Of a stretch of 64,000 bases of DNA, positions 5,811 through 59,182 are shown piece by piece (the first letter of the stretch is position 1; every line of letters starts with the position of its first letter). The DNA is from Natrinema sp. SYSU A 869. GTDB lineage: Archaea; Halobacteriota; Halobacteria; Halobacteriales; Natrialbaceae. Location of the stretch: the NCBI RefSeq assembly GCF_019879105.1, contig NZ_CP082247.1, positions 620,001-684,000 of the forward strand, in the 5' to 3' direction. Position numbers and translations under genes: made by a program. The notes beneath the pieces are model-generated. The model had not been told where the DNA came from. It was given only the letters and a program-made list of their open reading frames with translations, and did no database searches.

Positions 5811-6034
5811 TGGTCAGTGAGTCTCGTCGTCTCTCCAGGAATGTCCACATCCGCTGGCAGAACGATCCGGCGTTCGGTGTACTCGAGGTCCCCCGACCAG
5901 TAATCGATCGCGGCCCGGCGACAGGACTCGACGGTCTCGAACGCGCGCCGCGAGGTCTGGTCCTCGAGGACGTCGCCGAGCAACGCCCCAAGTTCGCGGA
6001 CGTCCTGCCGGACGCCCCTGTTGTGCAGTCTCAT
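5807..6034 (-). pseudogene. ppc: PEP carboxylase N-terminus fused to a foreign tail
   Basis: The first 50 residues (MRLHNRGVRQDVRELGALLG, then EDQTSRRAFETVESCRRAAI) match the start of haloarchaeal phosphoenolpyruvate carboxylase, a protein of about 900 residues. After residue ~50 the frame switches to GDLEYTERRIVLPADVDIPG, which is instead similar to the tail LEYTERRVILPRDAEIPGET of the coiled-coil protein at 26156-27127. The stop at 5807 overlaps the start of the next reverse gene (5810). This is a recombination scar, not an enzyme. Confidence 0.75.
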
Positions 6035-18206: not shown

Positions 18207-18547
18207 ATGAGCCGCCCACCCACACCGTCCGGTCGCGACCGGCTGCGGCGCGTGGCCGGTGCTGGCTGAGTGGTGGCTCCCCGCACCATGACGGCATCCA
18301 GTCCCCCTCCGAACGCACCGACCGCGAGGCAGTCCTCGACCGCCTCGCCGACACCATCGAACTCACCCACGACCGAATCGCGGCCAGCGACCCCGACACG
18401 GCCGCCGAGCAGGAACTCCAGATCAAGTGGATCCGCACGCTCGGCTATCTCTCGGGGCAGTACCGCAAGCTGCTCAAAGACGAGGACCTCGACGAGATGG
18501 CCGCGGAACTCGACCTGCTGCACGCCGACGACGGAGGACCGCGATGA
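18207..18547 (+). pseudogene. terminase small-subunit-like gene, frameshifted
   Basis: ATG at 18207 gives MSRPPTPSGRDRLRRVAGAG and stops at 18267-18269. A shifted frame carries on as HHDGIQSPSERTDREAVLDR, ADTIELTHDRIAASDPDTAA and YRKLLKDEDLDEMAAELDLL to the TGA at 18545-18547, which overlaps the terL start. Size (~109 residues), position directly before terL and helical make-up suit a small terminase (DNA-recognition) subunit. A TATA-like agttatacc is about 30 bp upstream. One-base shift near 18265. Confidence 0.65.
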
Positions 18548-20104
18548 GCGATCCGACCAAACGCGAACTCGAACGGGAACTCGCGGCCCTCAAACACCAG
18601 TTGGAGGGGCCACCAGACGACGCCCCGACCGACGTGACGGTCCAGTGGCGCGACGCCGCCCCCGAGGCCCGGCCCACGGGGATCGACTACGATCCCGAGA
18701 CGGCCACGCTCACCTACGATCTCTGGGCGGCCCAACGGGAGTGTCTCGCGGCGCTCACCGGCGGCGAAGCGGATCTCGTCGCCTGCCTCGCGGGGTATGG
18801 CAGCGGGAAGTCCATCCTGGGCGCGCGCTGGCTGCTCACCCAGGCGCTGGCCCACCCCGACAGCCGGTTTCTGGCGATGGGCGTCGACTTCACCAAGGCC
18901 CGCGACAGCACGTTTCGCATCCTGTTCGACCAGCTTGCCCGGCACACGGACGGCGATGGTGACACGGGCCCACAACGGGCCCGAAACCTCGCCGGTGGTC
19001 GCCGACTACACCCGCAGCGCCAACCGACTGACGCTGACCACCGGCGCGACGATCATCCTCGGGGCGGCCGACAGCTGGAACCGCTACGCCGGCGACGAGT
19101 TCGGCGCCATCTGGCTCGACGAGCCCAGCCACTACGAGGCCGACCTCCACGACCTCCTCGAGATGCTCGGCAGCCGGCTGCGCGGCGTCGCCGGGCCGAA
19201 AGTGCAGTGTTGGACGCTGACCGGTAACGGCTACAACGACGCCTGGGAGATCCTCGGCCAGCGCCAGGACAAAACCGGCGACCCGATCGGGCTCGCCATC
19301 GAGGTGGTGCGGGCGTCGACGCTCGACAACCCGTATCTCGATCCGGGCACCCGCGAGCGCTTCGAACGCCAGTACGCCGACACCGACCGTGAGGCCCAGG
19401 CGCTGCGCGGGGGGTTCGCCGCCGCCCAGGGATTGGTCTACAGCGGTTTCAGCCGCGATCGACATGTGATCCCCCATGCCACCGCTTGCGAGCGTGCCGG
19501 CGACAGCTGGCGGGTCTACGGCTACGACGCCGGCTGGGACGACCCTCGGGTCTGTCTCGAACTCGGCAAGACGTCGTACGAGCAACTCGTTGTCCTCGAC
19601 GCGTTCTACGAGTCGGAAAGTCACCTCGAGGACGTCCGGGCCTGGCTCGCCGACAACGGAAAGCCACGGGGGACGATCTACTGCGATCACGAACCCGCCC
19701 AGATCGACAAGCTCAACCGCGCGGGCTACTCCGCCGAGAAAGCGACGAAGGACCTCGACGAGGGGATCGCCGAGGTGCGCAAACGCCTCGAGGCCGACGG
19801 CAATCTGCCCGTCGACAACCGTGAGAAGGTAATCATGGTCATGGGTGGGGTTCCCGGCGGCACCCACCTCTCGTCGCCGACGGGGGAAACGCGGCGCGCG
19901 GGCGAGCCACCCTGTGGCGAGACAGCCAGCGCTGAGGCAACGCAATCAGAACAGCCCACCGTTGGGCTCCTGATTTCCGAGCGCTGCCAGCACCTGATCC
20001 GGGAGTTCCTCGGCTACAAGGCAGACCACGTCGGCAAGGCGACCGCCGAGGACCACTGTCTCGATGCGCTGCGCTACGCCTGCATGAGCGTCGCCGGGCG
20101 ATAA
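18544..20104 (+). pseudogene. terminase large subunit, one frameshift
   Basis: Start overlaps the small-subunit stop. Residues 1-140: MSDPTKRELERELAALKHQL, then Walker A CLAGYGSGKSILGARWL (81-97). Near 18960-18985 the frame shifts and continues HNGPETSPVVADYTRSANRL, Walker B GAIWLDEPSHYEADL, motif WTLTGNGYNDAW, then an RNase-H-like nuclease part (VYGYDAGWDDPR, GTIYCDHEPAQIDKL) ending FLGYKADHVGKATAEDHCLD. Total about 520 residues, normal for TerL, the ATP-driven DNA packaging motor and headful nuclease. Apart from the single shift the gene is open, so a read error is possible. Confidence 0.82.
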
Positions 20105-20373
20105 GTGCCCGCGAGTACTGGTCGCTACTCGGTGACGAGCCGGCCGGCTGCCGCCGCCCGTGCCCTCGCGGTCGCGGCCCGTCTCCTCGCCGCGGAGCCA
20201 TGGAGTCGATTGCCCAGCCTCGGACAGCCGCTCGCGGTGGGCGGTCAGATGCCCCTGTGGAAGGCGGCTCGCAGTAAGCGGACACGACACTGGCACCCGG
20301 TGACGGCCGTCCGAACGGGCTACCGGACCCAGCTCGGGGGGAGCTATACGACGTTCGCTACCGAAGGGGGCGC

Positions 20374-20550
20374 ATGGACCGCCGCAAGCGGCTTGGATTG
20401 CGGCTGCACCGCGCGCTGCTTTATTGGGGGCTGCTACGTCACCCACGCGGGCGAGCGGCGGCCCGCGAGCGGTATACGCCGACCGGCAAGCGCCGGGCGC
20501 CGCCGGACGACCCCGAGGCGGCTGATGGCGGCGACCGATCCGGCGACTAA
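20374..20550 (+). CDS. 58-residue YWGLL microprotein, paralogue 1
   Basis: MDRRKRLGLRLHRALLYWGL, then LRHPRGRAAARERYTPTGKR and an acidic end. It aligns with the 55-residue product at 28198: both share RKRLGLRLHRALLYWGLL, HPR and ERYTP. Conservation across two distant loci with different third bases supports real coding. A basic amphipathic helix followed by an acidic tail suggests a small DNA-, membrane- or protein-binding peptide. Function unknown. It lies downstream of terL. Confidence 0.7.
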   Translation: MDRRKRLGLRLHRALLYWGLLRHPRGRAAARERYTPTGKRRAPPDDPEAADGGDRSGD

Positions 20551-20592
20551 CCGGCGGCCGGTGGCCGTGGCGCGGTGAGCGGGTGGCGGCCG

Positions 20593-20699
20593 CTGCGCTC
20601 CCAGCGGGTGGGGGCACGACCGGCCGGTTAGCGACCGAGCCCCACGGCTGGCGCGCTCACTCTCACTCTCTGTCTCTCGTCCGGATCGCAGCCTCGAGC
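20593..20699 (+). repeat. ~100-bp repeat R, copy 2
   Basis: ctgcgctcccagcgggtggg .. ctctgtctctcgtccggatc, similar to 11689-11790. Its end runs into the 580-bp direct repeat copy B. Confidence 0.7.
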
Positions 20700-21277
20700 A
20701 GTGCGAGCGTGGCGCCGGTGGTGATCGCGTGACCCAAAGGGCAAAGGGGCGCCAGCAGCCAGTGACGGCCTAGACGCGTGAGCTACTCCTCATCGACGGT
20801 ACCAGAGATGTCGCACGGAACATACCGCTCGCGGGAGATAGTCGGTCGCGTCGCGGCAGGCTCACTTGGGAGAGTTGGCTCGGCCAGTTCCGCCAGCCGG
20901 GTTTCGCCGGCCGCAGTAATTTCGTAGACGCCACCGGTGGTCTGGCGGACGTCGCCAGTCGACTGCAGGGCGGCACACCGTTGGGCGACCGTCAGTGGAT
21001 GGGCCTCACAGTGGGCCGCAAGCGACGCTATTTCGAGCGGACCGTGTGTGACAAGCACGGCCAAGGCTGTCTGCCGTGAGCAGGAAGTCATGGCGCAACA
21101 TGGTAGATAATGATCTATCATGGTATAAATCTCGAGGGTGACGTCTCTCCTCGCCCGGACCGCAAGGCGGTAGCCCTAACCTCGCCGCCATCGAGACGCA
21201 CGACCGGACCGGCGACGCTGCCGACCGGACCAATCCGGACGTCCTGCTCAAGCGCGGCACAACGCTGCGCGACCAGC
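20692..21277 (+). repeat. ~580-bp direct repeat, copy B
   Basis: Same orientation and nearly the same sequence as 14243-14818; differs by a short insertion (gggcaaag near 20742) and scattered substitutions. The distance between matching points is about 6.45 kb. Holds the second wHTH gene. Confidence 0.85.
20783..21091 (-). CDS. small winged-helix protein, duplicate 2
   Basis: 102 residues, MTSCSRQTALAVLVTHGPLE onward, nearly identical to the product of 14328-14636 (AA to VT and P to S changes in the first helices). Same promoter layout: tatcatggtataaat about 30 bp upstream on the reverse strand, where the palindrome is imperfect compared with copy A. Conservative differences suggest recent duplication or ongoing gene conversion. 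Confidence 0.72.
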   Translation of the reverse strand: MTSCSRQTALAVLVTHGPLEIASLAAHCEAHPLTVAQRCAALQSTGDVRQTTGGVYEITAAGETRLAELAEPTLPSEPAATRPTISRERYVPCDISGTVDEE

Positions 21278-21360
21278 GGCTGGAGGCACGAACGGCCGGT
21301 GCGCGACCGAGCCCCATGGCTGGCGCAGTCTCTCTGTCTCTCGTCCGGATCGCGGCCTCG
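21275..21360 (+). repeat. ~100-bp repeat R, copy 3
   Basis: agcggctggaggcacgaacg .. tctctcgtccggatcgcggc. It abuts the end of direct repeat B, as copy 2 abuts its start. Confidence 0.65.
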
Positions 21361-21738
21361 CGCGGCGGGCAGTCACCGTTCGAGTGGGCGCACCCAGCGG
21401 CTACCGATTAGCGACGCGCCTATACCGTAGTGAACCGCCGCGAGCAGGAGGTGCGAGCCACGGCCCACACCACCACTCGCGGGCGGTGGGCGCCGGCCCG
21501 CTGGTGGGTCGGGGAACCCCGATAGGACCGATCCGGACTGGGCGCCGGTGTGGTGCTCGACACCAGCCACGCCGCGTGCGGCTCGAGCGACGCCAAATCC
21601 GGCCGCGTCGCCAGCCGGCTGGGGAGCCGGCGGCGTGGGGAGACGCCGACCCGTGGGCCGGATGGGGCAGGTGCAGACTGCCACGAGAGGACAGGGCGCC
21701 CGCCGAGCCGTTCGGCCCGTGCCCAGGCACCCCACGCA
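21361..21738. other. GC-rich non-coding stretch
   Basis: Nothing recognisable; open frames are GC-driven. It ends at the stop of the nuclease-like gene. Confidence 0.35.
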
Positions 21739-22377
21739 TCAGCAGGACGCGGCTGCCGTCGGTGCCGATGGGGCCACTGCTGTGAGACCGTAGTTGAACG
21801 CCGTATTGCCGCTCGCACGCGCCGGATGCTGGGAGGCGTACGCCTGCCACTCGAGCGTATAGTCGCCGTCCAACTCGAGGACGCGATCTTGACTCGCACG
21901 CCGACGTGCCGCCTCGGGCCAGGCCAGCCGCCCGCCGACAGTCCGGCCGTCAGAGAGTGTCAATGCGTCGTCATTCGCCCCGCTGGACTGGTTGTCCCAT
22001 GTAAGGGTGTCGGTCGTCAGTATCACCGCCACACCCCGATCACAGTGCCCGGCCGCGACACGCGTTTCGAGCCGCTCGAGATCGGCGAGAGACGCATAGC
22101 AGCCCATATCCGTCGGGTCATTGCCAAACTGAAAGGTCTCGTCGGCCGGCTGTGCCTCGAACGGCTTCGTTGGAGACGTCAGTTCCACGGCCATGGTGGT
22201 CTCGCCGTCGGCCAGCCAGAGATCAACGATGACATCGCCGACCGGATACTCGGCGCGGATCGTCAGCGACGGGAACTGCCGGTGGAGTGCCCACGCAAGT
22301 GCCTGCTTGAAATCGGCTTCGCTGTGGAAGACGCGTGGGAGCTGCTCGAGCGAGGCGGCAAGGAGCGCGGCCTGCAT
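21739..22377 (-). CDS. PD-(D/E)XK nuclease-like hypothetical protein
   Basis: 212 residues. The core FHSEADFKQALAWALHRQFP (helix with E), PVGDVIVDLWLADGETTMAV and ELTSPTKPFE resembles the alpha-beta-beta core of PD-(D/E)XK nucleases: E in the first helix, D of IVDLW, and ExT in AVELT where ExK is usual. The lost lysine makes activity uncertain. A middle region (CDRGVAVILTTDTLTW) continues the beta sheet. TATA-like gcttatgag lies about 28 bp upstream of the start at 22377. It stands alone beside provirus debris, so a defence or mobile-element nuclease is possible; this is inference from fold pattern only. Confidence 0.6.
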   Translation of the reverse strand: MQAALLAASLEQLPRVFHSEADFKQALAWALHRQFPSLTIRAEYPVGDVIVDLWLADGETTMAVELTSPTKPFEAQPADETFQFGNDPTDMGCYASLADLERLETRVAAGHCDRGVAVILTTDTLTWDNQSSGANDDALTLSDGRTVGGRLAWPEAARRRASQDRVLELDGDYTLEWQAYASQHPARASGNTAFNYGLTAVAPSAPTAAASC

Positions 22378-22501
22378 ACGTCGTCTCCACTGAGAGTGCT
22401 CATAAGCCCTGTCGAAGCTCTCGCACAGCGCAATCCCCCAGTAGTGATTAGCCCTCCAACCCACTATTGGCTTCTCTCTTCGAAACCAGAGAGGAGTTGC
22501 G

Positions 22502-24094
22502 CTACGAACCACCAATCTCTTCGACGTCTTCTGCCTGGATCTCGAATCCATACGTGAGGTCACCAACAGAAACCGAACGCTTCCATCCTGTAAGTGCAAA
22601 GTCAGCTGTGTCGCCCGGTTCGAGGTCGACAGTCTTCATCCGGTGCTCACCGTCCGGTCCTCTCACGGTGAGCCGATAGTCCGCAGTAACGTTCTTCACT
22701 GTCGCGGACCTGCTACTGTATTCGGCGTCATAGACTGGAGCATACTCAGTACCGCCAATCTCGAAGGAGATCGAGGAATCTATCACTTCAAGTTTCCCTT
22801 CGAGCTCAGGGTCCAGATCAAAGTCAGGCTCAAGTTCGTCGATCGGGACAGAAACGCTAACACGCCGAACATCAATTTCATACTCGGCTGCCCCCTCACA
22901 GTTTTCTAAGCTCATACTCGAGTAAATTCGCCTCTCGCCTTTTTCAATACGCTCTCTGCCTGTACCCGGTCCGCCAGGGGTACCTATCCGCGTAATTTCT
23001 TCCCCATCATCCGAATAGACACTCACCTCAGCTCCGAAGGAGAGGAGGTACGTTTCGGGAGTGGTTTTCTCGACCTCTATGCGGGCCTCACACTCGTCTG
23101 ACCCATTCCGTATGAGTGCGTGATCCTGAACCTCCAGATGCTCTGCAGCTCTCTCGGAGAGGATTACTTCCCCCTCTGCATCGATCTCCTCGTTGTGATC
23201 GTTGACCAGTTCAGCTTCTTCGATCTCATAGTCCGACGTTCCAATCTGAACGAGATAACTCTCGACGTCTTCGGTACAGGATCCCTCAATTTCCTTTTCA
23301 TCTGATTCGCCTGGCTCAAGGTTAGTGAACCCACGATCGAGATCATCGCTATTCACGGTCGCACTGACGACGTAATCGTGAGTGACGTTTGTGACACCGA
23401 TAGTGACCCGACACTGGCCACTCCCGGGTTCGTCTACCCAGTTGAACCCGTGGTCGACTTCGATCTTGTCCTCGAGTTCGGGATGGATGTCGACGTCAGC
23501 CTCTATCGCGTCGGCAGAGATGATAGCACTAAAATTCACGACCTCGAACGTATACTGGTCAGTACCTTCGCAGTCATTGAAACTGACCGTGTAGAATCGA
23601 TTCTCGTCCTCACCGAGCTCGCCCCTCTCAACACTTGGTCCAGCTTTTTCTGCGATCGTCTCACCGTCGTCAGAATAGAGCGTTACCTTCGTCTCAAAGG
23701 AGACGTGGTACTCGTCGTCGCTGCTGATTCGTTCGAGTTCCGCGGCAAACTCACACCCGGCCCCGTCCGAGTCGAGTGCGTGATTGAGAACGTCCAGATG
23801 CTCTTCTGCTTTATCAGGAAGGATTACATCTGGTTGCTCTTCTGGTTCGGCGTCCTCATCGTCTTCAGCGTCGCCCTGATCTTGATCCTGCTCCTCTTCG
23901 CCCTGGATTTCGTATTCCTCTTGATCGGTATCGTTAGTACTGTTGTTCCCATTCAGGCCATCGTTTTCGTCTCGATCCTGATCTTCGATGTCACCACTAG
24001 CTTCCTCTTCAGACTCGTCCTCAGCCTCGGAACAGCCAGCGAGTGTCGTAGAGAATATAATTCCAGTACCCGCTAAGACCGATCGTCTATCCAT
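22502..24094 (-). CDS. Tat lipoprotein with duplicated domain
   Basis: 530 residues. Signal MDRRSVLAGTGIIFSTTLAG then C21 is a twin-arginine lipobox start, so the protein is exported folded and lipid-anchored outside. Residues ~22-90 are an extreme acidic linker (E/D/Q runs). Two related units follow: one with EEHLDVLNHALDSDGAGCEF and VTLYSDDGETIAE, one with AEHLEVQDHALIRNGSDECE and VSVYSDDGEEITR, each followed by an acidic beta-sandwich-like segment with paired cysteines (NDCEG, ENCEG). Extracellular role unknown. The promoter region upstream is strongly AT-rich. Confidence 0.8.
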   Translation of the reverse strand: MDRRSVLAGTGIIFSTTLAGCSEAEDESEEEASGDIEDQDRDENDGLNGNNSTNDTDQEEYEIQGEEEQDQDQGDAEDDEDAEPEEQPDVILPDKAEEHLDVLNHALDSDGAGCEFAAELERISSDDEYHVSFETKVTLYSDDGETIAEKAGPSVERGELGEDENRFYTVSFNDCEGTDQYTFEVVNFSAIISADAIEADVDIHPELEDKIEVDHGFNWVDEPGSGQCRVTIGVTNVTHDYVVSATVNSDDLDRGFTNLEPGESDEKEIEGSCTEDVESYLVQIGTSDYEIEEAELVNDHNEEIDAEGEVILSERAAEHLEVQDHALIRNGSDECEARIEVEKTTPETYLLSFGAEVSVYSDDGEEITRIGTPGGPGTGRERIEKGERRIYSSMSLENCEGAAEYEIDVRRVSVSVPIDELEPDFDLDPELEGKLEVIDSSISFEIGGTEYAPVYDAEYSSRSATVKNVTADYRLTVRGPDGEHRMKTVDLEPGDTADFALTGWKRSVSVGDLTYGFEIQAEDVEEIGGS

Positions 24095-24728
24095 ACTGAT
24101 ATTTTTGAGAGCTTATTAATAATATTGGCGAAAATATTGTATATATGTATTATTTTATAATCGTTCTGTGTGCATCCACCTCGTCGTGAACGGCGGGAAG
24201 GAGGTCAACAAGACGCCACCAGTCGTATTGAATCGGTCGCCAGCACCCTCGGTCGCGAGCCACAACGAAACGGTGAGTGGTGCCACTGAGACAGCGGATC
24301 GCGGCAGCATGAATGCTGCGACCGGATTTGTCCGTAGCCTCCGTCGAACGGCACACCAAACGGGCTGCGCTGCTGGATCTCGCCAAGACACGAGACAGCG
24401 CGGTTTCAGCCTCGAGTACCTCACTGCCACCGGTCGTGATAGGCCACTTGTATCTCTCGTGTCCACAAATCGGTCCCAGCGTGGCTTCGTTTCGTTCTCG
24501 CCACACCAACGCTATGACCGCCTAGCTCATATCGTGCGACTAGAGACCGCTGCTCGAAGGAACGTATCGCGCGAGGCGGGTACCCTTTCGAGTTAACAGT
24601 GCTGTCAGCCCGTTCCTTCGCTACAGGTAGGTCTCGAGGGAGGACTCGAGCTTCGCTGGCTATAATAGAATCTAATACGGAATAGCCAACCCTAGAGCAG
24701 GCTATTCTGGGTTTGATTATTCGGCAGG
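24095..24728. other. intergenic region with promoter
   Basis: 24110-24160 is AT-rich (tattaataatattgg, tatatatgtattatttta) and holds the lipoprotein promoter. From about 24160 to 24600 both strands have open frames, but I recognise no protein; it may be an old gene fragment. A weak palindrome surrounds tagagcaggcta near 24690. Confidence 0.35.
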
Positions 24729-25799
24729 TTACTCCTCGCGATTGCTGCCCGAGCGCCATCGCAGGCGCACCTCATGGGTCGTTCCGTCCTCGTCCTCTCG
24801 AGTCCCCTCGGTTACGGAGATGGGCTCCTGTGGCGAGTTGCGCTCGGCGACGGTGGTCTCGTTCACCGAATGCATTCCCTCGACGTTCGTTGGAGACGTC
24901 CCCTCGGAGTGATCGGTAAGATCCTCCCGGAGCTGAGAGAGGTACGCCGCCACCTCGTCGCGGTTCATGTCTGCATCCAGCACCGAAGGTTCGATCCGCG
25001 TCTCGACAACCTCGCTGGCACGACCGATGATGACTGCGTTGACCACCGCACCCAGCAGCAGGATGACGCCGCTGAAATACAGCCAGGTGACTAACAGGAT
25101 GATACTCGCGATAAGATTGCCCCCACCTCCGCTCAGGGATGCATACACCTGGAACAGCACCTGTAGGACCGCCCAGCCGACGGCCCCGACAATCGTTCCT
25201 GGGAGCACGTCCCGTGGCTCGACGTCGATCTCTGGAAACAGGTAATACATCGGGAAGAACGCGATAACGAGCCCGACGACGAGCAGCAGGGGGACCGCAA
25301 ACTCGATGAACGGGACAAACGAGAAGAACGCGACCACGCTGGTGGCGACGACCATCGCGATGATCCCCAGCGTGAGAGTGATCAGCATCAGCAGTCCGTT
25401 TTTGATTTGGCCGACGAACGACTCCTGCGTGGTCGTCTCGTAAATCTCCGAGAAGGCGGTGTCAATCCCGCGGAACACCTTGAGCGCCCCCCAGACGAGC
25501 GTGAGAATCCCGATGATGGACGCGCTGACGGTCGATCCGGCGCCGGCGCCTGACTGTTGTTCGATCATCACCTCGATAACCCCGCCGACCGACTGAGAGA
25601 CGTTGCTGGTAGCGAGCTCGATGACCCGCTGCTGCAGTCCGGGATCAACGAACGATACCGCGAGGAGGAAGAACATGACCAGCGGAACGAGCGAGATGAA
25701 CGCGCTGTAGGCGATACTCCCGGCAAGGAAGGTGATGTTCTTCTCGCTAAAAACGGTCTTGACTACCTTCGCCTGCGACACAGCCGACTCGGTATTCAT
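24729..25799 (-). CDS. YihY/BrkB-family membrane protein
   Basis: 356 residues, six predicted membrane segments in the first 280: AGSIAYSAFISLVPLVMFFL, later MVVATSVVAFFSFVPF and LIASIILLVTWLYFSGVILL. Family marks are FRGIDTAFSEIYE and FPEIDVEPRDVLPGTIVGA. The C-terminal ~75 residues are hydrophilic and acidic. The family was once annotated ribonuclease BN in error; its transport or envelope role is unsettled. The start at 25799 is chosen since it begins just before the cytosolic N-terminus typical of the family. Confidence 0.85.
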   Translation of the reverse strand: MNTESAVSQAKVVKTVFSEKNITFLAGSIAYSAFISLVPLVMFFLLAVSFVDPGLQQRVIELATSNVSQSVGGVIEVMIEQQSGAGAGSTVSASIIGILTLVWGALKVFRGIDTAFSEIYETTTQESFVGQIKNGLLMLITLTLGIIAMVVATSVVAFFSFVPFIEFAVPLLLVVGLVIAFFPMYYLFPEIDVEPRDVLPGTIVGAVGWAVLQVLFQVYASLSGGGGNLIASIILLVTWLYFSGVILLLGAVVNAVIIGRASEVVETRIEPSVLDADMNRDEVAAYLSQLREDLTDHSEGTSPTNVEGMHSVNETTVAERNSPQEPISVTEGTREDEDGTTHEVRLRWRSGSNREE

Positions 25800-26155
25800 G
25801 GTTTCCGTATCACAGTCCGGACAATTAGTCCATGGGCTTGGATGCAGTCCACCTTCCATGGGCAACGGCCGTCTTCAGGGCCTTCAGGTGGACTTCCTGT
25901 CTGTCAGAAATCACTTTCATTTCAGTGTCAACCGCATCGAGCTCCGGAACTGTTCTCCGTGGACAGCCGTCGTCTCCCGTTAGGTATTCGAAGCCGTCGC
26001 TACTCTGTGACTGCCGAGACTGCTCGAGCGGGGACACCCACAGCTACCGAACCGACATTACACCCGCCAGCATGATGGTCACTGGTGTCGTAGCGGGGGT
26101 GTCTCGATCTCTCGAGGTGGGTTCACCAGGTCGTGTCCATGGTCATCCGAAGACG
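25800..26155. other. intergenic stretch
   Basis: Promoter of the YihY gene on the reverse strand; otherwise no gene or strong repeat that I can support. Confidence 0.35.
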
Positions 26156-27127
26156 TCAGCTGTCTTCGGAGGCCGTCTCGCTCGTGATCGCCTTCGCATC
26201 GGTGCTCGAGTCAGTCGGGACCGCGGTGCTCGAGTCCGGACCGATATGTGAGTTAATTCCCGTACTGGCACTCGGCGCCGTCGTCTCACCGGGTATCTCG
26301 GCGTCTCTCGGAAGGATCACCCGGCGCTCGGTGTACTCGAGGCTGTTCTTCCGTTGCGTGCGTTTGCGGACCGCGAGGCGGTGTTTGGAGAGTTCGAGGA
26401 CCGCGTCGATCGTCCTCGAGACGAGTTTCTTCGCGTAGGTTTCGCTGATACCGTCTTCCTGTCGGCGGATCCAGTGTTTCAGGTCGGAGGCGGTGACGTA
26501 CTCGTCGATGGATTTGCAGCCGTCCATCCAGGGATCGTCGCCGACGGTCGGGTCAGTTCTAGCCTGCCAGAGTTTCGCGGCCAATCGCGTCGGGAGGGAG
26601 TTGGCGGTCGATCGGCGCATGTCCGCATCCATCCGCGCGAGTTGCTGGATCGGCAGGAGGTCTCCGTGGGCGAGGGCAACGGTGTCGGTTCCGTCCAGGG
26701 GATCGCTCGAGTCGGGGACGCGGTAGTACGGGCGTCCGTCGTCTTTGGTGAACTTCTCGAGGCGATCGCCGGCGATCCGGATCTCGTGGGGGGTGACGGT
26801 GTCCGTTCGGAGGTGAGCTCCCTTCTCGAGTTCGCGAGACTGGAGTTCCCGGACGCGGTCCTTGTTGGCGGCCGCTTTCCTGAGTGCGGCCTCGGCGGCG
26901 CGGTTCGTCTCGGTCGCCCGGGACTCGCACTCGGTCAATCGGTGCTCGAGATCAGTGATTCTGCCGTCCTTTTGATCGCACTCCTCTTCGAGGGCTGCGA
27001 TGCGCTCGTTCTTCCGATCGCACTCCGCCTCGAGATCGGTGACGCGGTCCTCGAGGGCCGTCACGTGATCGCGGAGCGCCTCGAGTTCGCGCACGAGGGG
27101 CTGCTGGTCGCTCGAGTCACTCCCCAT
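26156..27127 (-). CDS. coiled-coil protein of haloarchaeal mobile elements
   Basis: 323 residues. Residues ~10-100 form a long coiled coil with heptads (LEALRDHVTALEDRVTDLEA, RIAALEEECDQKDGRITDLE). A globular part follows, with LARMDADMRRSTANSLPTRL, WMDGCKSIDEYVTASDLKHW and LVSRTIDAVLELSKHRLAVR. A basic/acidic tail includes NSLEYTERRVILPRDAEIPG. The ATG lies within the end of the upstream gene (overlap 11 bp), so both form one operon. The tail also occurs fused to a ppc fragment at 5807. Likely a plasmid or provirus DNA-handling protein; function unknown. Confidence 0.65.
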   Translation of the reverse strand: MGSDSSDQQPLVRELEALRDHVTALEDRVTDLEAECDRKNERIAALEEECDQKDGRITDLEHRLTECESRATETNRAAEAALRKAAANKDRVRELQSRELEKGAHLRTDTVTPHEIRIAGDRLEKFTKDDGRPYYRVPDSSDPLDGTDTVALAHGDLLPIQQLARMDADMRRSTANSLPTRLAAKLWQARTDPTVGDDPWMDGCKSIDEYVTASDLKHWIRRQEDGISETYAKKLVSRTIDAVLELSKHRLAVRKRTQRKNSLEYTERRVILPRDAEIPGETTAPSASTGINSHIGPDSSTAVPTDSSTDAKAITSETASEDS

Positions 27128-27554
27128 CGCGATCACCCTGCTCGTGTGTTGGGTCGTCAGCGCGTTCGACGTCGTCGACGGTCCCCGGAGCTGGTCCACG
27201 GTAGGTCGTCGTGAGCGAGTCACAGCCGATGACCGTCGGGGGATCACCGTCGTCCGACCGCTCGGGAAGCATCACCCCCGATCCGAACAGCTCGAGGCCG
27301 ACGCGCATCGCTTCCGCATCGATCTCTCGGAGTCGGCGTGTCGTTTCGCGGTACGTCTCGTCGTCGATCGCGAGCTCGGTGGTCTCGTCGGCAGTTCGGA
27401 CGTCCGTGAGGATACTTCGGGTTAGTTCGGTGATCGACTCGAGGCGTTCGCGGATGGAGTCGTCAGTGATCTTGCCATCGCTGGCTCGAGCGGTCGGCGT
27501 CGATGCGTGTGGTCGGTCGGGGCTTTCAAGACCCCGCGAATCGTCGTTTGACAT
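27117..27554 (-). CDS. partner of the coiled-coil protein
   Basis: 145 residues, acidic: LESITELTRSILTDVRTADE, then TYRETTRRLREIDAEAMRVG and LELFGSGVMLPER. Helix-rich centre with disordered ends, no known motif. It overlaps the coiled-coil gene by 11 bp and is divergent from the phiH1-repressor-like gene, a layout typical of a lysogeny or copy-control switch where the first genes face a regulator. Family not recognised. Confidence 0.6.
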   Translation of the reverse strand: MSNDDSRGLESPDRPHASTPTARASDGKITDDSIRERLESITELTRSILTDVRTADETTELAIDDETYRETTRRLREIDAEAMRVGLELFGSGVMLPERSDDGDPPTVIGCDSLTTTYRGPAPGTVDDVERADDPTHEQGDRDGE

Positions 27555-27656
27555 GGCTTCCGTAGGGAGGTTACGGGAGCTTCTCGCGGACTCGGTGCCG
27601 CAAACACCGATCCGCTATTCTGTAACTCTGAAACCGAGAGAGTCACGTAGAGCTTC

Positions 27657-27669
27657 CGTACACGGTACG
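27657..27669 (+). promoter_or_regulatory. palindrome touching the repressor start codon
   Basis: CGTAC-ACG-GTACG, a perfect 5-3-5 inverted repeat, ends exactly one base before the ATG at 27670. In a leaderless or short-leader gene a protein bound here would cover the transcription start. Candidate autoregulatory operator of the divergent 27555-27669 region. Confidence 0.55.
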
Positions 27670-28050
27670 ATGCACTCCCCTGACATAAATCTTGACTACA
27701 TATGGCGTTTGGTTAAGACTGCAAATGGTGTTTTACCCCCTCGAGATGCTACTGGTTTTTCTGTGCTGCTGGCGGTGTATCGCGAATATATGGTCGAGCG
27801 GGTCCCATGGATGGCTCCTGTTGATTACGAGATTCTGCTCTTCTTCGACGAGCACCATATCCAAGTTTCTCCAAAAGTGATTGCAGCGAACATCGACTAC
27901 GATCGTCAGTATGTGGGTAAGCGATGTGGGACACTCGCTGATGCAGATCTTCTGGAATCCGTTGGTACCGGCCTCTATCAGCTCACGGATACCGGGCACG
28001 CATATCTCGAGGGCCAACTCGACGTGAGCGAACTCGAGATTGACGAGTAG
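27670..28050 (+). CDS. phiH1-repressor-like winged-helix protein
   Basis: 126 residues. The winged helix lies in the second half: WMAPVDYEILLFFDEHHIQV, SPKVIAANIDYDRQYVGKRC, TLADADLLESVGTGLYQLTD and TGHAYLEGQLDVSE. This D-x-x-ILxFFxEH..SP..IA.NI.Y.R.YV..R pattern is that of the phage phiH1 repressor family, common in haloarchaeal proviruses and plasmids. The N-terminal 45 residues form an additional helical part. The start at 27670 is chosen because the palindrome ends there; the longer open frame upstream overlaps the divergent gene. Confidence 0.8.
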   Translation: MHSPDINLDYIWRLVKTANGVLPPRDATGFSVLLAVYREYMVERVPWMAPVDYEILLFFDEHHIQVSPKVIAANIDYDRQYVGKRCGTLADADLLESVGTGLYQLTDTGHAYLEGQLDVSELEIDE

Positions 28051-28197
28051 TTTGATCGGACTTCGACTGCGTTACTCGTTTTGATTGCTACTACTCAGAA
28101 AGCCCCGCCCGCGGTGGCTTGGTCGATCACTTCAAACCGATACCGGTTGAAAGAGATAGCCCCATTCGTATTAGCCGATCTCCGCTGAAGTGATCGT

Positions 28198-28365
28198 ATG
28201 GGCCTCCGAAAGCGCCTTGGGTTACGGCTGCACCGGGCACTGCTTTACTGGGGGCTCCTAGACCATCCGCGCAGTCATGAATACGTGAAAGAGCGGTACA
28301 CGCCCCTCGGTGGGGTACGGGAGTCGGATTCCCTGGACGAAAATAACGGCTCTGGAGAGCGATGA
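28198..28365 (+). CDS. 55-residue YWGLL microprotein, paralogue 2
   Basis: MGLRKRLGLRLHRALLYWGL, then LDHPRSHEYVKERYTPLGGV and an acidic, asparagine-containing end. Homologous to the 58-residue product at 20374 through the basic helix (RKRLGLRLHRALLYWGLL) and RYTP, but GC-poorer at third positions, so selection acted on protein. TATA-like ttcgtatta lies about 30 bp upstream. It stands alone between the repressor and the glycan locus. Confidence 0.7.
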   Translation: MGLRKRLGLRLHRALLYWGLLDHPRSHEYVKERYTPLGGVRESDSLDENNGSGER

Positions 28366-28435: not shown

Positions 28436-29572
28436 CTACCACTCGTCGTCGATCGCACGACGGTAACACTGTTCCGCTTGTTCAGCGACGGTATCCCAGT
28501 CATATTGTTGGGCTCGGGCCGTGGGTTCCGTGTTCGGCCGCTCGCCAGTGAGGGCTCGCTCGAGTACTGCTGCGAGGTCGTCGGCGGTCGGAGACGCGAG
28601 GAAGCCCGCGTCACCGATGACCTCGGAGGCAGCTGATTCGGGATGCTCCGCTGCGATAACGGTACAGTCCGCGGCCATCGCCTCCGCGAACGTGATCCCG
28701 AAGCCTTCGCGGGTCGAAGGCGAGGCGAAGACGTCCGCCGCGCGCATGTGGGCGAGTACGTCGTCGTACTCCTCTAAAAATCCGAGCATCGTCACGCGGT
28801 CGGCGTGCTCGAGGGCTTGGGCTTGTTTCTCGAGGCGATCGCGTTCTGGCCCATCACCGATGATGCCGAGGGTCGCGTCGGGGACAGTGTGTGCAATTTT
28901 GTCGAAGGCCTCGAGGAGCAGATCGACGTGCTTGTCCTTGATCAGGCGGCCCGCGTAGAGGACGGTGAAGCCATCACTTGTCGGCTCTGTCGATTCGATC
29001 TGGTTCACGTCGATTCCGTTCGGGACGACCTCGATCCGATCCCGGGACGGGCCGATTTCGGTGAGTCGATCGGCGGTGACGCTCGAGACGGCGATCGGAT
29101 AGTGTGGCGTTTTGGCCGTGAGTCGCTCGATGCCCTTGCCAAAGGGAGCAAGCCGACCGAGGTAATCATCCCAGTAGTCGAGCCAGACTTCGTGCCAAGT
29201 TGTGATTAGCGGCGTGTCGGTTCCGAGGGTGGTGAGCTTCGAGGCGAGGACGGGAAAGTAAGGAAAGAGAGATGCGACGATGATATCGTGATCGTCGACG
29301 TTTCGTCGGAGATGTGGGAGTAACCGAGCGGAGAAGTCAATCGCTTCCGTGATCGATCGGCGTTCGTCCTCGTAGAGCTCTTGCGCCGGTGCGACGCCGT
29401 AGAGTGTCATCCCTTCATAGTCCATCACCTGTGGACCGTCCCAGAAGTGGCGGCCGTAAATCGTGACATCGTGCCCCTCTGCTGCAAGGCGAGTGCCGAT
29501 TTCGTGGATGCGCTTTTCCGCACCGCCTTTCACGAAAGGAAAAACAACGTTCGTCACGAAACCGATATCCAT
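28436..29572 (-). CDS. GT4 glycosyltransferase
   Basis: 378 residues of a GT-B fold family 4 retaining glycosyltransferase. N-domain with FVKGGAEKRIHEIGTRLAAE; C-domain with VVPNGIDV, FTVLYAGRLIKDKHVDLLLE, GIIGDGPERDRL and the nucleotide-binding SPSTREGFGITFAEAMA with the E-x7-E signature. It transfers sugar from a nucleotide-sugar to a lipid-linked or surface glycan on the cytosolic face. It is divergent from the sulfatase-like gene at 29677, sharing a 104-bp promoter region. Confidence 0.88.
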   Translation of the reverse strand: MDIGFVTNVVFPFVKGGAEKRIHEIGTRLAAEGHDVTIYGRHFWDGPQVMDYEGMTLYGVAPAQELYEDERRSITEAIDFSARLLPHLRRNVDDHDIIVASLFPYFPVLASKLTTLGTDTPLITTWHEVWLDYWDDYLGRLAPFGKGIERLTAKTPHYPIAVSSVTADRLTEIGPSRDRIEVVPNGIDVNQIESTEPTSDGFTVLYAGRLIKDKHVDLLLEAFDKIAHTVPDATLGIIGDGPERDRLEKQAQALEHADRVTMLGFLEEYDDVLAHMRAADVFASPSTREGFGITFAEAMAADCTVIAAEHPESAASEVIGDAGFLASPTADDLAAVLERALTGERPNTEPTARAQQYDWDTVAEQAEQCYRRAIDDEW

Positions 29573-45041: not shown

Positions 45042-45989
45042 ATGCAGAATAAGCGCGTCCTGATAACGGGTGGGGCAGGGTTTATCGGATCCAATCTGGC
45101 AAATCATCTCGCAGCAAATAACGACGTCGTCGTGATCGACGACGAGTACCTCGGCACGTCCGAGAACCTCGAGTCTGCCGTCGACTACCACAATCGGAGC
45201 GTCCTCGAGGACGATCTCCCGACGGACGTCGACGTGGTATTCCACCTCGCGGCGCTCTCCTCCTATGCGATGCACGAGGAGAACCCCACCAAGGGAGCCC
45301 GCGTCAACGTCGAGGGGTTCGTCAACGTGGTCGAGCAGGCCCGCCAGGACGGCTGTGAGACGGTCGTCTACGCGTCGACGTCCTCGATTTACGGCAGTCG
45401 TACCGAGCCCTCGCCAGTCGACATGCCGGTCGCCGTCAACACCGGCTACGAAGCCTCGAAACTCGCCCGCGAGCGCTACGGCGAGTACTTCGCCAATCAC
45501 TATGATATGAACGTCGCTGGCATGCGCTTCTTCTCGGTCTATCAGGGCTACGGCGGCGCTGAAGAACACAAGGGCGAGTACGCGAACGTGATCGCCCAGT
45601 TCGCCGACGACATCGCGAACGGGGAGGCACCGGTGCTGTACGGCGATGGCACGCAGACGCGGGACTTCACCCACGTCACGGATATTGTCCGCGGACTCGA
45701 GCAGGCCGCGGACACCCAGCTCACTGGCATCTATAACCTCGGGACGGGCGAGCCGTACAGTTTCAATACGGTTGTCGAGATGCTCAACGACGAACTCGGG
45801 ACCGATATCGAGCCCGAATACGTCGAAAACCCGATTCCCGATTCGGTGTACGTGCACGACACCTGCGCCGATTCGTCGACGATGCGCGAGGCGACCGGGT
45901 GGGCACCCGAGATCGACTTCGAGGAGGGACTCCGGCGGGTCTGTGCACAGTACACCGAGGCCGACGCAGTGACCTCGTCCAACCAGTAG
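45042..45989 (+). CDS. NAD-dependent sugar epimerase/dehydratase
   Basis: 315 residues of an extended short-chain dehydrogenase acting on nucleotide sugars. NAD-binding ITGGAGFIGSNLA (8-20), FHLAALSSYAMHEENP, catalytic ASTSSIYGS and Y136/K140 in NTGYEASK, FFSVYQGYG, and DFTHVTDIVRGLEQA. Likely UDP-glucose 4-epimerase type; the exact sugar is unknown. The ATG at 45042 is preferred as it directly precedes the nucleotide-binding strand. Its 3' end is duplicated at 43667-43927. Convergent with the nucleotidyltransferase gene, 127 bp away. Confidence 0.86.
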   Translation: MQNKRVLITGGAGFIGSNLANHLAANNDVVVIDDEYLGTSENLESAVDYHNRSVLEDDLPTDVDVVFHLAALSSYAMHEENPTKGARVNVEGFVNVVEQARQDGCETVVYASTSSIYGSRTEPSPVDMPVAVNTGYEASKLARERYGEYFANHYDMNVAGMRFFSVYQGYGGAEEHKGEYANVIAQFADDIANGEAPVLYGDGTQTRDFTHVTDIVRGLEQAADTQLTGIYNLGTGEPYSFNTVVEMLNDELGTDIEPEYVENPIPDSVYVHDTCADSSTMREATGWAPEIDFEEGLRRVCAQYTEADAVTSSNQ

Positions 45990-46116: not shown

Positions 46117-47100
46117 CTAGTCAGCTGGTGACTCAGGACGATTCGTGACCTGTAATTCAGAGCCGAACAACGCCTCGGAGAGCGAATACCCAGTGAGGCA
46201 GGTTCCCTCACCGACGATCGACCGCTCGAGGGCCGTCTCCTCGAGCGTCACCTCCGGAAAGATCACTGCGTCCTCAACCGTCGTATCGACAAGTGTCGCA
46301 CCGTCCATCACGTGAACGTTCGGCCCGACCGTCGCGTTCTCGAGTGTCGCACTGTCGGCCACGCACGATTCCCCATCGAGATGCCAGGCAACAGCATCGA
46401 GATAGCTCGCCGGCGTGCCGATATCGAACCAGGCACCCTCGAACGTATACGCGTAGGTTGGCTTCCGATCCTGTAGCCACTGGATGAACCAGCCGGGTTC
46501 GTCGGGGTTGTTCTCCCCAGCGAGATAGGTTGCCAGCAGCGAAAGCGAGTTCTGCGGGAAGGCATAGCAGGCGATCGAAACGAGCGTGCTCTTGGGATCA
46601 GCAGGTTTCTCCTGGAAGTCGACGACGCGCTCGCCCTCGAGTTCGACGAGTCCATAGGATTTCGCCTTTTCGCGTGAACCAACGTCGTAGGCGGCGAGCG
46701 TCGGTGCGTCGCGCTCCGCAAAGGTATCGATAAAGTCCGCAATGTCGAAACTGATCAGGTTATCGCCGGCGATGACCAACAGATCGTCATCGATCTCTTC
46801 TCGGTCGACGAGTTGCGCCAGTGCACCGACGACGCCGAACTTCTCGTCCTCGCCAACCGTCTCCTCGATCGAGAGCCGTGGCTTGTCGAACTCGCTGTCG
46901 GCAAGATACGCCTCGAAGTCATCAGCGAAGCGCTCGTTCGTGCTGATGTAGACGTCGTCGATCCGCGCGTCCACCTCGAGTTCGGCGAGGATCCGGTCGA
47001 TCACGGTATCCTCACCGATCGGGAGAAACATCTTCGGCCGCTCTTTTGTGAGCGGCCACATCCGCGTCGCATACCCTCCTGCGAGGACAACCGCGTTCAT
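46117..47100 (-). CDS. sugar-1-phosphate nucleotidyltransferase
   Basis: 327 residues. Signature MNAVVLAGGYATRMWPLTKE then RPKMFLPIGE, VIAGDNLISFDIADFI (metal D), GLVELEGERVVDFQEKP, GAWFDIGTPASYLDA, and a short left-handed beta-helix (SATLENATVGPNVHVMDGAT). It makes NDP-sugars, for example dTDP- or UDP-glucose, from sugar-1-phosphate. Start at 47100 chosen at the family-conserved first strand. Its 5' end plus upstream DNA is repeated in broken form at 47450-47625 and 52205-52506. Confidence 0.87.
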   Translation of the reverse strand: MNAVVLAGGYATRMWPLTKERPKMFLPIGEDTVIDRILAELEVDARIDDVYISTNERFADDFEAYLADSEFDKPRLSIEETVGEDEKFGVVGALAQLVDREEIDDDLLVIAGDNLISFDIADFIDTFAERDAPTLAAYDVGSREKAKSYGLVELEGERVVDFQEKPADPKSTLVSIACYAFPQNSLSLLATYLAGENNPDEPGWFIQWLQDRKPTYAYTFEGAWFDIGTPASYLDAVAWHLDGESCVADSATLENATVGPNVHVMDGATLVDTTVEDAVIFPEVTLEETALERSIVGEGTCLTGYSLSEALFGSELQVTNRPESPAD

Positions 47101-55428: not shown

Positions 55429-56361
55429 ATGCACGACCAACACGTTCTCATCACCGGCGGCGCAGGATTCATTGGCTCACACCTGACCGAGCGATTGCTC
55501 GCAAACGGGGCCACCGTCACGGTTATCGACAACCTCTCGAACGGCCGCGAGGAGTGGGTCCCCGACGACGCAACCCTTATCGAGCGCGATCTCACCGACC
55601 CCAATGCGCTCGAGGGAGTCCTCACGAGCGACGTCGATCGTGTCTTCCACCTCGCAGCGTCGAAAGCCGTGAACAGCGACCGCCCGCGGGCGCAGTTCGA
55701 AGCGAACACACAGATGACTTACAACGTGCTCGAGACCATGCAGGACGTCGGCGTCTCGGAGCTCGCTTATACCTCGACGTCGACGGTGTACGGGGAAGCG
55801 CCGCGGCCGACCCCCGAAGATTACGCGCCCCTCGAGCCGATCAGCGTGTATGGTGCGAGTAAGCTCGCTGATGAAGGTCTCTGTTCGACATATGCGCACT
55901 CCCACGACCTGACCGTCCGCACGTTCCGCTTTGCAAACATCGTCGGCTCACGGCTGCACGGGGCAGTGATCCCTGACTTTATCGAGAAACTCCACGAGAA
56001 CCCGGACAGACTGACCATCCTCGGGAACGGTCGTCAGGAGAAGTCGTATATGCACATCGAGGACTGTCTCGATGCGATGTTGACCGTCCTCGAGCGTGCC
56101 GATGGCTCACTCGCCACCTACAATCTCGGCACGCGGACGACGACCTCCGTGACCCGCATCGCCGATATCGTCAGTGAGGAGTTAGACCTCGCTCCCGACT
56201 ACGAGTATACAGGCGGCGACCGGGGCTGGACCGGCGACGTACCGAAGATGCGCCTCTCGATCGAGAAACTCGACGCGCTCGGCTGGGGGCCACAGTACAC
56301 CAGCGATACAGCGGTCCGCAAAGCGACACGTGACCTGCTTGCAGAGGGCGTGGCGGACTGA
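55429..56361 (+). CDS. NAD-dependent sugar epimerase/dehydratase
   Basis: 310 residues. LITGGAGFIGSHLTERLLAN (7-26), FHLAASKAVNSDRPRAQFEA, TSTSTVYGEAP, Y141/K145 in VYGASKLADEG, FRFANIVGSRLHGAVIPDF, and GGDRGWTGDVPKMRLSIEKL at the end, as in UDP-glucose 4-epimerase-like and UDP-glucuronate-type enzymes of haloarchaeal glycosylation clusters. Complete and in frame. Parts of it recur as scraps at 43504-43646 and 44926-44985. Supplies a nucleotide sugar to the glycan locus; the exact sugar is unknown. Confidence 0.87.
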   Translation: MHDQHVLITGGAGFIGSHLTERLLANGATVTVIDNLSNGREEWVPDDATLIERDLTDPNALEGVLTSDVDRVFHLAASKAVNSDRPRAQFEANTQMTYNVLETMQDVGVSELAYTSTSTVYGEAPRPTPEDYAPLEPISVYGASKLADEGLCSTYAHSHDLTVRTFRFANIVGSRLHGAVIPDFIEKLHENPDRLTILGNGRQEKSYMHIEDCLDAMLTVLERADGSLATYNLGTRTTTSVTRIADIVSEELDLAPDYEYTGGDRGWTGDVPKMRLSIEKLDALGWGPQYTSDTAVRKATRDLLAEGVAD

Positions 56362-57913: not shown

Positions 57914-59182
57914 CTACCGATTGACTGCGCTTAGGAAGAACGACGAAAACACCGTCTGGAGTCCGATGATGATCGCCGTAAACGCGACGAGCGACCCCAT
58001 CGTGAACTCGAGCGTCGAGAACCCGTTCAGAATCCACTGATAGACCAGAATTCCCGCGTACGCACCACCGAGACCGAACACTGCGAGTCCGGCCGTCGCG
58101 CCGTGCTCGAGAGACAGCGATCCCGTCACGCGCTCCGTGATCGGATCCTCGGGTTTCTGGATCGGATCGCTCGTTACGGCGGCGAAGACCCCGAGGCTGC
58201 CAATCTGATAACCGACAATGGTCAGCAGACTCCCGGCGATCATCGAGTGGATCCCGAGGCTCACACTGCCGACCGATATCCCGGTATACGCAAGGCCCAT
58301 TACGGCGAGTCCGACGAGACATAATAGGAGTCCCGGTGCCGAAAACAGGTAGCCCGGCGCGTTCACGAGCATGAACCGTACGTGCCGCCAGCCATCTTTG
58401 AAGCTCTCGAGGGTTTCCTCACCCTCCCGCTCGTGGTAGATGATGGGGGTTTCGACGATCGTGAGATCTTTCGCGCCGGCCTCCATGATCATCTCGCTGG
58501 CGAACTCCATGCCGGTCGTCTCGAGGCCCATCGTCTCATAGGCCTCCTTCGTGAAGATCCGGAAGCCGCTGTGGGCGTCGCTGACCCCGGCCCCGTAGAA
58601 GGCGTTCAGGAATTTCGTCAGGAGCGGATTCCCGATATACTGATGAAGCGACGGCATTGCGCCGGGTTTGATTTCGCCCTCGAGCCGACTCCCCATCACC
58701 ATATCGGCGTCCTCGTCGCGGAGATGAGCCAGTAGGCGTGGGATCTGTTCGAAATCGTAGGTCGTGTCGGCGTCACCCATGACCACATAGTCTCCGCGGG
58801 CACGATCGAATGCGTATCGGTAGGCGTAGCCATACCCTGGTTGGTCGGGTTCGTAGATAATCGCACCCATCTCCTGCCCGATCTCAGGCGTGCGATCGGT
58901 CGAACTATCACTCAGGATAATCTCGGCAGTCAGACCGAGAGAAGCGATTGCCGTCTTCGCCCGCTCGATACATTCGGCAATGCCTGCCTCTTCGTTGAGC
59001 GTCGGCATCACGATGCTCAGCGTCGGCATCTGCTCGCTGTCCGGCCCAACAAGCAGGTTATCAGCCTCATGGTGGCTTGTCGTTTCGTGGTCGGTTTCTT
59101 GCTCGAGTCCGCCCTCGAGTGATTCTGATGTTGATTCGGCTTCCGTCGGATACGTCTGGTCTCTTCCTTCAGATCTCTTCAT
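57914..59182 (-). CDS. GT2 glycosyltransferase (dolichyl-phosphate-sugar type)
   Basis: 422 residues. A disordered acidic start (~50 residues), then a GT-A domain: LSIVMPTLNEEAGIAECIER, ILSDSSTDRTPEIGQ, GYGYAYRYAFDRARGDYVVM, DxD-type GDADTTYDFEQIP, MGSRLEGEIKPGAMP, SDAHSGFRIFTKEAY. The C-terminal ~150 residues hold four membrane helices. This is the DPMS/AglJ-like layout: transfer of a sugar to dolichyl phosphate at the cytosolic face for N-glycosylation or polymer assembly. Start at 59182 is the longest sensible; MPTLSIVMP is an alternative. Confidence 0.85.
   Translation of the reverse strand: MKRSEGRDQTYPTEAESTSESLEGGLEQETDHETTSHHEADNLLVGPDSEQMPTLSIVMPTLNEEAGIAECIERAKTAIASLGLTAEIILSDSSTDRTPEIGQEMGAIIYEPDQPGYGYAYRYAFDRARGDYVVMGDADTTYDFEQIPRLLAHLRDEDADMVMGSRLEGEIKPGAMPSLHQYIGNPLLTKFLNAFYGAGVSDAHSGFRIFTKEAYETMGLETTGMEFASEMIMEAGAKDLTIVETPIIYHEREGEETLESFKDGWRHVRFMLVNAPGYLFSAPGLLLCLVGLAVMGLAYTGISVGSVSLGIHSMIAGSLLTIVGYQIGSLGVFAAVTSDPIQKPEDPITERVTGSLSLEHGATAGLAVFGLGGAYAGILVYQWILNGFSTLEFTMGSLVAFTAIIIGLQTVFSSFFLSAVNR

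What the first reader, a model, noticed from the sequence alone, without database searches (positions are those of the whole stretch)
20374..28365. Paralogous YWGLL microproteins at two element-linked loci
The 58- and 55-residue products share RKRLGLRLHRALLYWGLL and RYTP with different codon choice, so the peptide is selected. One follows terL, the other follows the phiH1-type repressor. A family of tiny basic proteins with mobile-element genes could be an anti-defence, packaging or partition factor.
Basis: seen in the sequence. Interest (0 to 1): 0.58.

Follow-up and report, generated by a model that had tools for sequence, protein, structure and literature searches.

The report
Haloarchaeal small-protein family beside glycan genes
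Two tiny look-alike proteins in this salt-loving archaeon belong to an unnamed small-protein family that sits in sugar-coat gene clusters, and one branch of the family, found in relatives, shares its genetic on-switch with the swimming-filament genes.

Summary
Two ATG-started ORFs (58 aa at 20374-20550, 55 aa at 28198-28365) share an identical 18-residue core, with 8 of 18 codons differing. They are real genes: a small-protein family under purifying selection (dN/dS about 0.17-0.27), found in 23 of 391 sampled class genomes and 16 of 125 family genomes (two of those broken). It matches nothing in Pfam, NCBIfam, PHROGs or PDB sequences. The mobile-element reading fails: no relative in viral or phage collections, the neighbouring terL is frame-broken, and the copies share no flanking DNA. 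Instead, 21 of 22 copies in twelve genomes lie within 38 kb of an AglJ-like GT2 gene in a surface-glycan cluster. All ten copies of paralog group b, none in this window, carry an upstream 18-bp element that also marks the archaellum (arl) promoter in 46 of 83 arl-bearing family genomes. A 26-bp version hits 46 places in 125 genomes: 36 arl, 8 micro-b, 2 other; control 0. All ten b genomes have an archaellum; the window's genome has neither archaellum nor b copy. Best reading: small accessory of glycan clusters, with an archaellum-coregulated branch. The biochemical mechanism is inferred, not shown.

The parts
20374..20550 (+). small basic protein, c-type paralog (58 aa)
   Evidence: ORF; family alignment; purifying selection in group c; tree
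20344..20349 (+). TATA-like CTATAC about 25-30 nt upstream of the c-type ATG (leaderless spacing)
   Evidence: sequence; AT peak at -28..-25 over 24 a/b/c loci; function inferred
28198..28365 (+). small basic protein, a-type paralog (55 aa)
   Evidence: ORF; alignment; selection in group a; tree
28167..28174 (+). TATA-like CGTATTAG about 24-31 nt upstream of the a-type ATG, conserved in a-type relatives
   Evidence: sequence; upstream alignment; function inferred
27790..28050 (+). HTH regulator gene upstream of the a copy (context family F8)
   Evidence: phrog_2440 E 2.9e-25; recurs upstream of a-type copies
27117..27554 (-). conserved neighbour of unknown function (context family F7)
   Evidence: context; no Pfam or PHROG match
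26156..27127 (-). coiled-coil neighbour of unknown function (context family F3)
   Evidence: context; only weak coiled-coil matches
28436..29572 (-). GT4 glycosyltransferase convergent with the a copy; edge of the glycan cluster
   Evidence: PF00534 E 1.4e-34; whole or fragment beside most a copies
45042..45989 (+). NDP-sugar epimerase/dehydratase family gene
46117..47100 (-). sugar nucleotidyltransferase (context family F2)
   Evidence: PF00483 E 1.7e-39
55429..56361 (+). NDP-sugar epimerase
   Evidence: PF01370 E 3.7e-56
57914..59182 (-). GT2 glycosyltransferase, AglJ-like (context family F5), marker of the glycan cluster
   Evidence: PF00535; TIGR04182 AglJ 147.6 bits against a cut-off of 325, so related but not AglJ
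18427..20104 (+). terminase large subunit-like gene broken over two frames, upstream of the c copy
   Evidence: PHROG terL matches in two frames; frames

Best explanation
The two ORFs are members of an unnamed small basic protein family of Natrialbaceae (44-71 aa in the intact members of groups a, b and c; core M-x-x-RKR-x-x-x-R-x-x-R-x-x-x-YWGLL-x-HP-x-G...Y-(T/S)-P-x-G, then an acidic variable tail). The family is an accessory of one kind of surface-glycan gene cluster, marked by an AglJ-like GT2 gene. One paralog group (b) is switched on with the archaellum: its promoter carries the arl operon's upstream element at nearly the same distance from the TATA-like box. I infer that the protein works in the cytosol, probably at the membrane, as a small adaptor or regulator of glycan assembly, and that the b form couples this to making archaella (archaellin is N-glycosylated in haloarchaea). 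The window's copies are the a and c paralogs, which lack that element, in a genome without an archaellum; they would do the same job for the general surface glycan. Shown: reality of the genes, selection, cluster linkage, shared element, co-occurrence. Inferred: co-expression, location, partner, adaptor role.
For: Coding and selection: dN/dS 0.17 (9 a-set sequences, one of them G391, which the tree places with c), 0.265 (9 b), 0.225 (5 c) over 44 codons; differences concentrate at third codon positions. Linkage: 21 of 22 copies in twelve F5-bearing Natrialbaceae genomes lie 0.5-38 kb from an F5 gene, the exception being G104. Micro+ genomes are F5+ in 16 of 20, against 116 of 381 in the sample. 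Within the window's own genus all 5 genomes with an intact copy are among the 7 F5+ of 21 (P 0.001). Distant candidates outside the family also sit in glycan contexts: G056 and G082 between F5 and a sugar nucleotidyltransferase, G250 near DUF1616 and epimerase genes, G324 near GT and flippase genes, G098 near nucleotidyltransferase and epimerase genes. Regulation: an 18-mer read from b upstream regions alone hit 16 places in 12 genomes with 0 in the reversed control; 7 are the arl promoter, 6 micro-b, 2 a region near an HTR-like gene, 1 other. In 125 genomes the 18-mer lies at the arl promoter in 46 of 83 arl+ genomes, 49 of 49 such sites in the operon's orientation, and at 10 of 10 micro-b genes. 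The 26-mer: 46 places, 36 arl, 8 micro-b, 2 other, control 0. All 10 b genomes have PF04659 (arl) against 83 of 125 overall (Fisher P 0.014). Archaellin N-glycosylation matters for archaellum assembly and motility in Halobacterium salinarum (title and abstract start in search listing, PMC6591318).
Against: The window's own copies have no such element (only one 3-mismatch match in the window, at chance level), and the genome has no arl operon, so the motility link applies to the b paralog only. Eighteen of 55 exact 18-mer sites listed are at neither arl nor micro-b; 15 of these 18 were inspected and lie near housekeeping or HTR-like genes. The 26-mer was defined after seeing both promoter sets, and 2 of 10 b copies (G104, G197) do not match it with at most one mismatch. 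G104's b copy is not in a glycan cluster. Sixty F5 regions from the class gave no further member, so most F5 clusters work without it. The helix is no more amphipathic than shuffles and the AlphaFold models are weak (mean pLDDT 57.7 and 60.1), so nothing structural supports a membrane or partner role; a transmembrane-like tail occurs only in distant, weaker candidates (G350, G323, G250). Co-occurrence P values are not fully corrected for relatedness.
Confidence: 0.42

Rival explanations
1. It is a small nucleic-acid-binding regulator (basic N-terminal helix, acidic tail) that controls the glycan cluster or the archaellum operon, rather than an accessory of the enzymes.
For: Strongly basic core (net +5 to +9 over 38 residues in three members), invariant or nearly invariant arginines 4, 6, 10, 13, own promoter-like sequence, shared arl element in b, HTH gene upstream of most a copies.
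Against: No match to any known DNA-binding family; no confident fold; the aromatic YWGLL and HPxG motifs are not those of a DNA-binding motif known to me (recalled).
Confidence: 0.25
2. One reading: a factor of mobile elements (anti-defence, packaging or partition) that travels with them.
For: c copies lie near a broken terL and an Orc1/Cdc6-like gene (window), on a 288-kb plasmid near IS genes (G091), or near TnpB-like genes (G164); patchy distribution (16 of 125).
Against: No relative in viral contigs or phages; terL is frame-broken; paralogous copies share DNA only over the ORF and at most some 50-80 bp upstream; a and b copies hold fixed places in glycan clusters.
Confidence: 0.08
3. The shared element is a general haloarchaeal promoter element and the archaellum link of the b copies is accidental; the family is simply a glycan-cluster gene.
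For: 18 of 55 exact 18-mer sites are elsewhere, at several kinds of genes.
Against: The 26-bp form is at arl or micro-b in 44 of 46 places with 0 control matches; similar spacing to the TATA-like box and the operon's orientation at all 49 arl sites; b copies occur only in arl+ genomes, 10 of 10.
Confidence: 0.2
4. The ORFs are selectively neutral leftovers or non-coding DNA conserved for another reason (RNA or operator).
For: Some copies are broken (G144, G400, G197b); no annotated gene under the plasmid copy. No Rfam match was found, which does not decide.
Against: Third-position bias and dN/dS near 0.2 in three groups; conserved start, stop and, within groups, C-terminal tails.
Confidence: 0.03

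Closest known systems
Zinc-finger micro-proteins of Haloferax volcanii (HVO_0758 and others; PMC6562870, PMC10716476, titles and abstract starts in search listing)
   Same: Haloarchaeal proteins under 70 residues, some needed for swarming or biofilm formation
   Different: No C(P)XCG pair in the window's copies (they contain no cysteine); different sequence; here the link to motility is a promoter element and glycan genes, not a phenotype
CsmR archaellum regulon of Haloferax volcanii (PMC13286277; abstract and passages read)
   Same: A promoter-proximal element upstream of BRE/TATA at the arl operon
   Different: CsmR motif is TATCA(N4)TGATA; the Natrialbaceae element found here is ACTCACSNYTCGAWACGC(N4)CGAA
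Haloarchaeal N-glycosylation (agl) genes, AglJ and AglF
   Same: The cluster in the window holds AglJ-like GT2 and AglF-like nucleotidyltransferase genes
   Different: Both score below the curated cut-offs (147.6 of 325 bits; 80.4 of 400 bits); no small protein of this kind is known to me in agl pathways (recalled)

Membership tests
Haloarchaeal zinc-finger micro-proteins | two C(P)XCG motifs | tested here: not met
   Sequences: the window copies have no cysteine
Virus packaging or other phage factor | relatives in virus or phage genomes | tested here: not met
   none; PHROGs none
Insertion unit or MITE carrying an ORF | homology of paralogous copies extends into both flanks with defined ends | tested here: not met
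   paralogs match over the ORF and at most about 50-80 bp upstream; WINa/WINc only -11 to +63; only G197c1/c2 match some 85-100 bp further downstream
Archaellum (arl) promoter-element genes, b group | ACTCACSNYTCGAWACGC element upstream, with arl-like spacing | tested here: met
   10 of 10 b copies (9 exact, 1 with one mismatch); spacing
Archaellum (arl) promoter-element genes, the window's own copies | same element upstream of 20374 or 28198 | tested here: not met
   only a 3-mismatch match at 27450-27467 on the minus strand, chance level; no arl operon in G000
Glycan-cluster accessory | stable linkage to surface-glycan genes | tested here: met
   21 of 22 copies within 38 kb of F5
Glycan-cluster accessory | effect on glycans | not testable with these tools
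   needs a deletion mutant and glycoproteomics
Any Pfam, NCBIfam, PHROG or PDB family | profile match | tested here: not met
   none for the window copies; only below-cut-off matches for distant G250

The most novel reading that the evidence does not exclude
The b paralog is a dedicated archaellum-linked switch of protein glycosylation: in Natrialbaceae one unidentified regulator binds a 26-bp element present almost only at the arl operon and at this roughly 60-residue gene inside the glycan cluster, so that cells adjust surface glycosylation when they build archaella. The a and c paralogs in this window are versions released from that control and kept although this genome has no archaellum.
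Probability: 0.25. Interest if true: 0.72.

Novelty: new variant of a known kind. Interest (0 to 1): 0.5.

Why it matters
If right, it adds a previously unnamed small protein to haloarchaeal surface glycosylation, gives a DNA element with which the unknown archaellum regulator of Natrialbaceae could be fished out, and ties glycan clusters to motility through one tiny gene. It also shows that an ORF of 55 residues in a GC-rich genome, here seen by eye from codon-divergent repeats, can be confirmed by comparative data.

Tried and rejected
Rejected: mobile-element, packaging or anti-defence role. Amphipathic-helix membrane binding: the hydrophobic moment is not above that of shuffles, so not claimed. 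Structural RNA: no Rfam match in six loci. Fold search: not run, because both AlphaFold models were weak. Further members in other F5 clusters: 60 regions searched with a local profile, best E 0.33, worse than the best hit on reversed DNA (0.0045). The a and c promoters carry no arl element. tRNA integration at b loci: only one ARAGORN gene in 20 loci, so a tRNA-like stretch seen downstream of some b copies was left. Literature: I found no paper on this family in the searches and 85 of an open-access library; this does not cover subscription papers.

Rows dropped: G144 (5' part lost), G400 (frameshifted) and G197b (degenerate) were left out of dN/dS. Weak hits G162, G111, G384 and G014, G194 were not followed; G015 and G149 were looked at and not counted. 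One search lists 150 places and says more exist, so counts refer to the listed 150. Of 18 'other' exact sites, 15 were inspected.
Full report
Observation. The window lies in a 5.67-Mb haloarchaeal genome. I take its genus as Natrinema and its family as Natrialbaceae, by matching handle contigs to named records of equal length; this naming is an inference. Both ORFs exist as described, are 58% identical, and differ in 8 of 18 codons of the identical core. Their DNA similarity does not extend beyond the ORF start region.

Family. A single-sequence search found relatives in 20 of 391 class genomes, a profile in 23 of 391 at E 0.01 or better, and in 16 of 125 family genomes, of which G144 and G400 are broken. 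Three paralog groups appear in a tree of 28 copies: a (beside a GT4 gene and, in most cases, downstream of the F3-F7-F8 block), b (beside NDP-sugar epimerase and F5), and c (window 20374, G091 plasmid, G164, G197 twice). Within-group dN/dS is 0.17 to 0.27 (G391 was counted with a there, but the tree puts it near c). A TATA-like AT peak at -28 to -25 over 24 loci suggests leaderless promoters. No Pfam, NCBIfam, PHROG or PDB sequence match exists for the window's copies. AlphaFold gives two helices (3-18, 27-33) with low confidence.

Context. Genes around 32 loci were called and clustered locally, listed, and those of the window named by profile searches. Recurrent neighbours are GT4 and GT2 glycosyltransferases, nucleotidyltransferases, epimerases, sulfatase-like enzymes and flippases. 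F5 is a GT2 related to AglJ but below its cut-off. Twenty-one of 22 copies in twelve genomes lie within 38 kb of F5; b copies, G104 excepted, within 0.5-4.7 kb. F5 occurs in 116 of 381 genomes, and in 16 of 20 genomes with the small protein. A scan of 60 other F5 regions found no more members, so the small protein is an optional part. The copies of G104, G350, G323 and G065 are not in such clusters. G056 and G082 are distant candidates placed between F5 and a nucleotidyltransferase; their E-values (9e-5 and 0.0035) are modest.

Regulation. Upstream of the b genes an 18-bp stretch is conserved even in G104, whose copy is elsewhere in its genome. Written as a pattern before I knew its other sites, it hit 16 places in 12 genomes, 0 in the reversed control. 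Seven are between archaellin genes and the arlCE-first arl operon, judged from the translated neighbours (gene names recalled) and from PF04659; six are the b genes. Over 125 genomes (pattern widened at one letter after seeing the arl sites) the listed 150 places include 49 at arl in 46 of 83 arl-bearing genomes, all in the operon's orientation, and all 10 b genes; of 55 exact sites 28 are arl, 9 b and 18 other; the reversed control has 5 matches. Fifteen of the 18 others were inspected: gatA region 3, HTR-like region 4, pgk/GNAT region 3, five singles (these gene names are my reading of the translations). So the 18-mer is not exclusive. A 26-bp extension, defined after comparing both promoter sets, gives 46 places: 36 arl, 8 b, 2 other; control 0. 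The TATA-like box begins about 39-41 bases from the start of the element in both sets in G376. The b copy occurs only in arl-bearing genomes (10 of 10, against 83 of 125; P 0.014). The window's genome, G107 and G091, with a or c copies only, have no arl operon; G391, with one non-b copy, has.

Mechanism. Shown: real genes, selection, glycan-cluster linkage, shared element in b. Inferred: co-expression with archaella; a cytosolic accessory or regulator role in glycan assembly. Archaellin N-glycosylation is important for archaella in Halobacterium salinarum (PMC6591318, title and abstract start), which makes the link plausible. The Haloferax archaellum regulator CsmR binds a different motif (PMC13286277, abstract and passages).

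Verdict. Its mobile-element meaning is not supported; a glycan-cluster family with an archaellum-linked branch is. The window's own two copies are the branches without the archaellum element.

Noticed in passing
window 18427-20104: Terminase large subunit-like gene split over two reading frames, next to an Orc1/Cdc6-like gene (16845-18065): remains of a virus or plasmid element.
   Followed up: partly
window 26156-28050: Conserved three-gene block (coiled-coil F3, F7, HTH F8) that recurs upstream of a-type copies and of one c-type copy in other genomes; function unknown. A piece resembling F3 also lies at 5807-6034.
   Followed up: partly
L178-L187, L188-L199: The 18-bp element also occurs near gatA-like, HTR-like and pgk/GNAT-like genes in several genomes, without explanation.
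   Followed up: partly
G239:C5:707355 and G330:C21:39415: The only two places of the 26-bp element that are neither arl nor micro-b; G239's is close to a polyprenyl synthase-like gene (L191).
   Followed up: partly
L073, L086, L088 downstream of b copies: A stretch resembling the 3' end of a tRNA gene follows some b copies; possible integration scar.
   Followed up: no
L079, L003 upstream of a copies: Palindromic CTAGTACTAG-like repeats upstream of some a copies, possible operator.
   Followed up: no
L093, L095 and L099: Distant candidates in other haloarchaeal families carry hydrophobic, transmembrane-like C-terminal segments after the core.
   Followed up: partly
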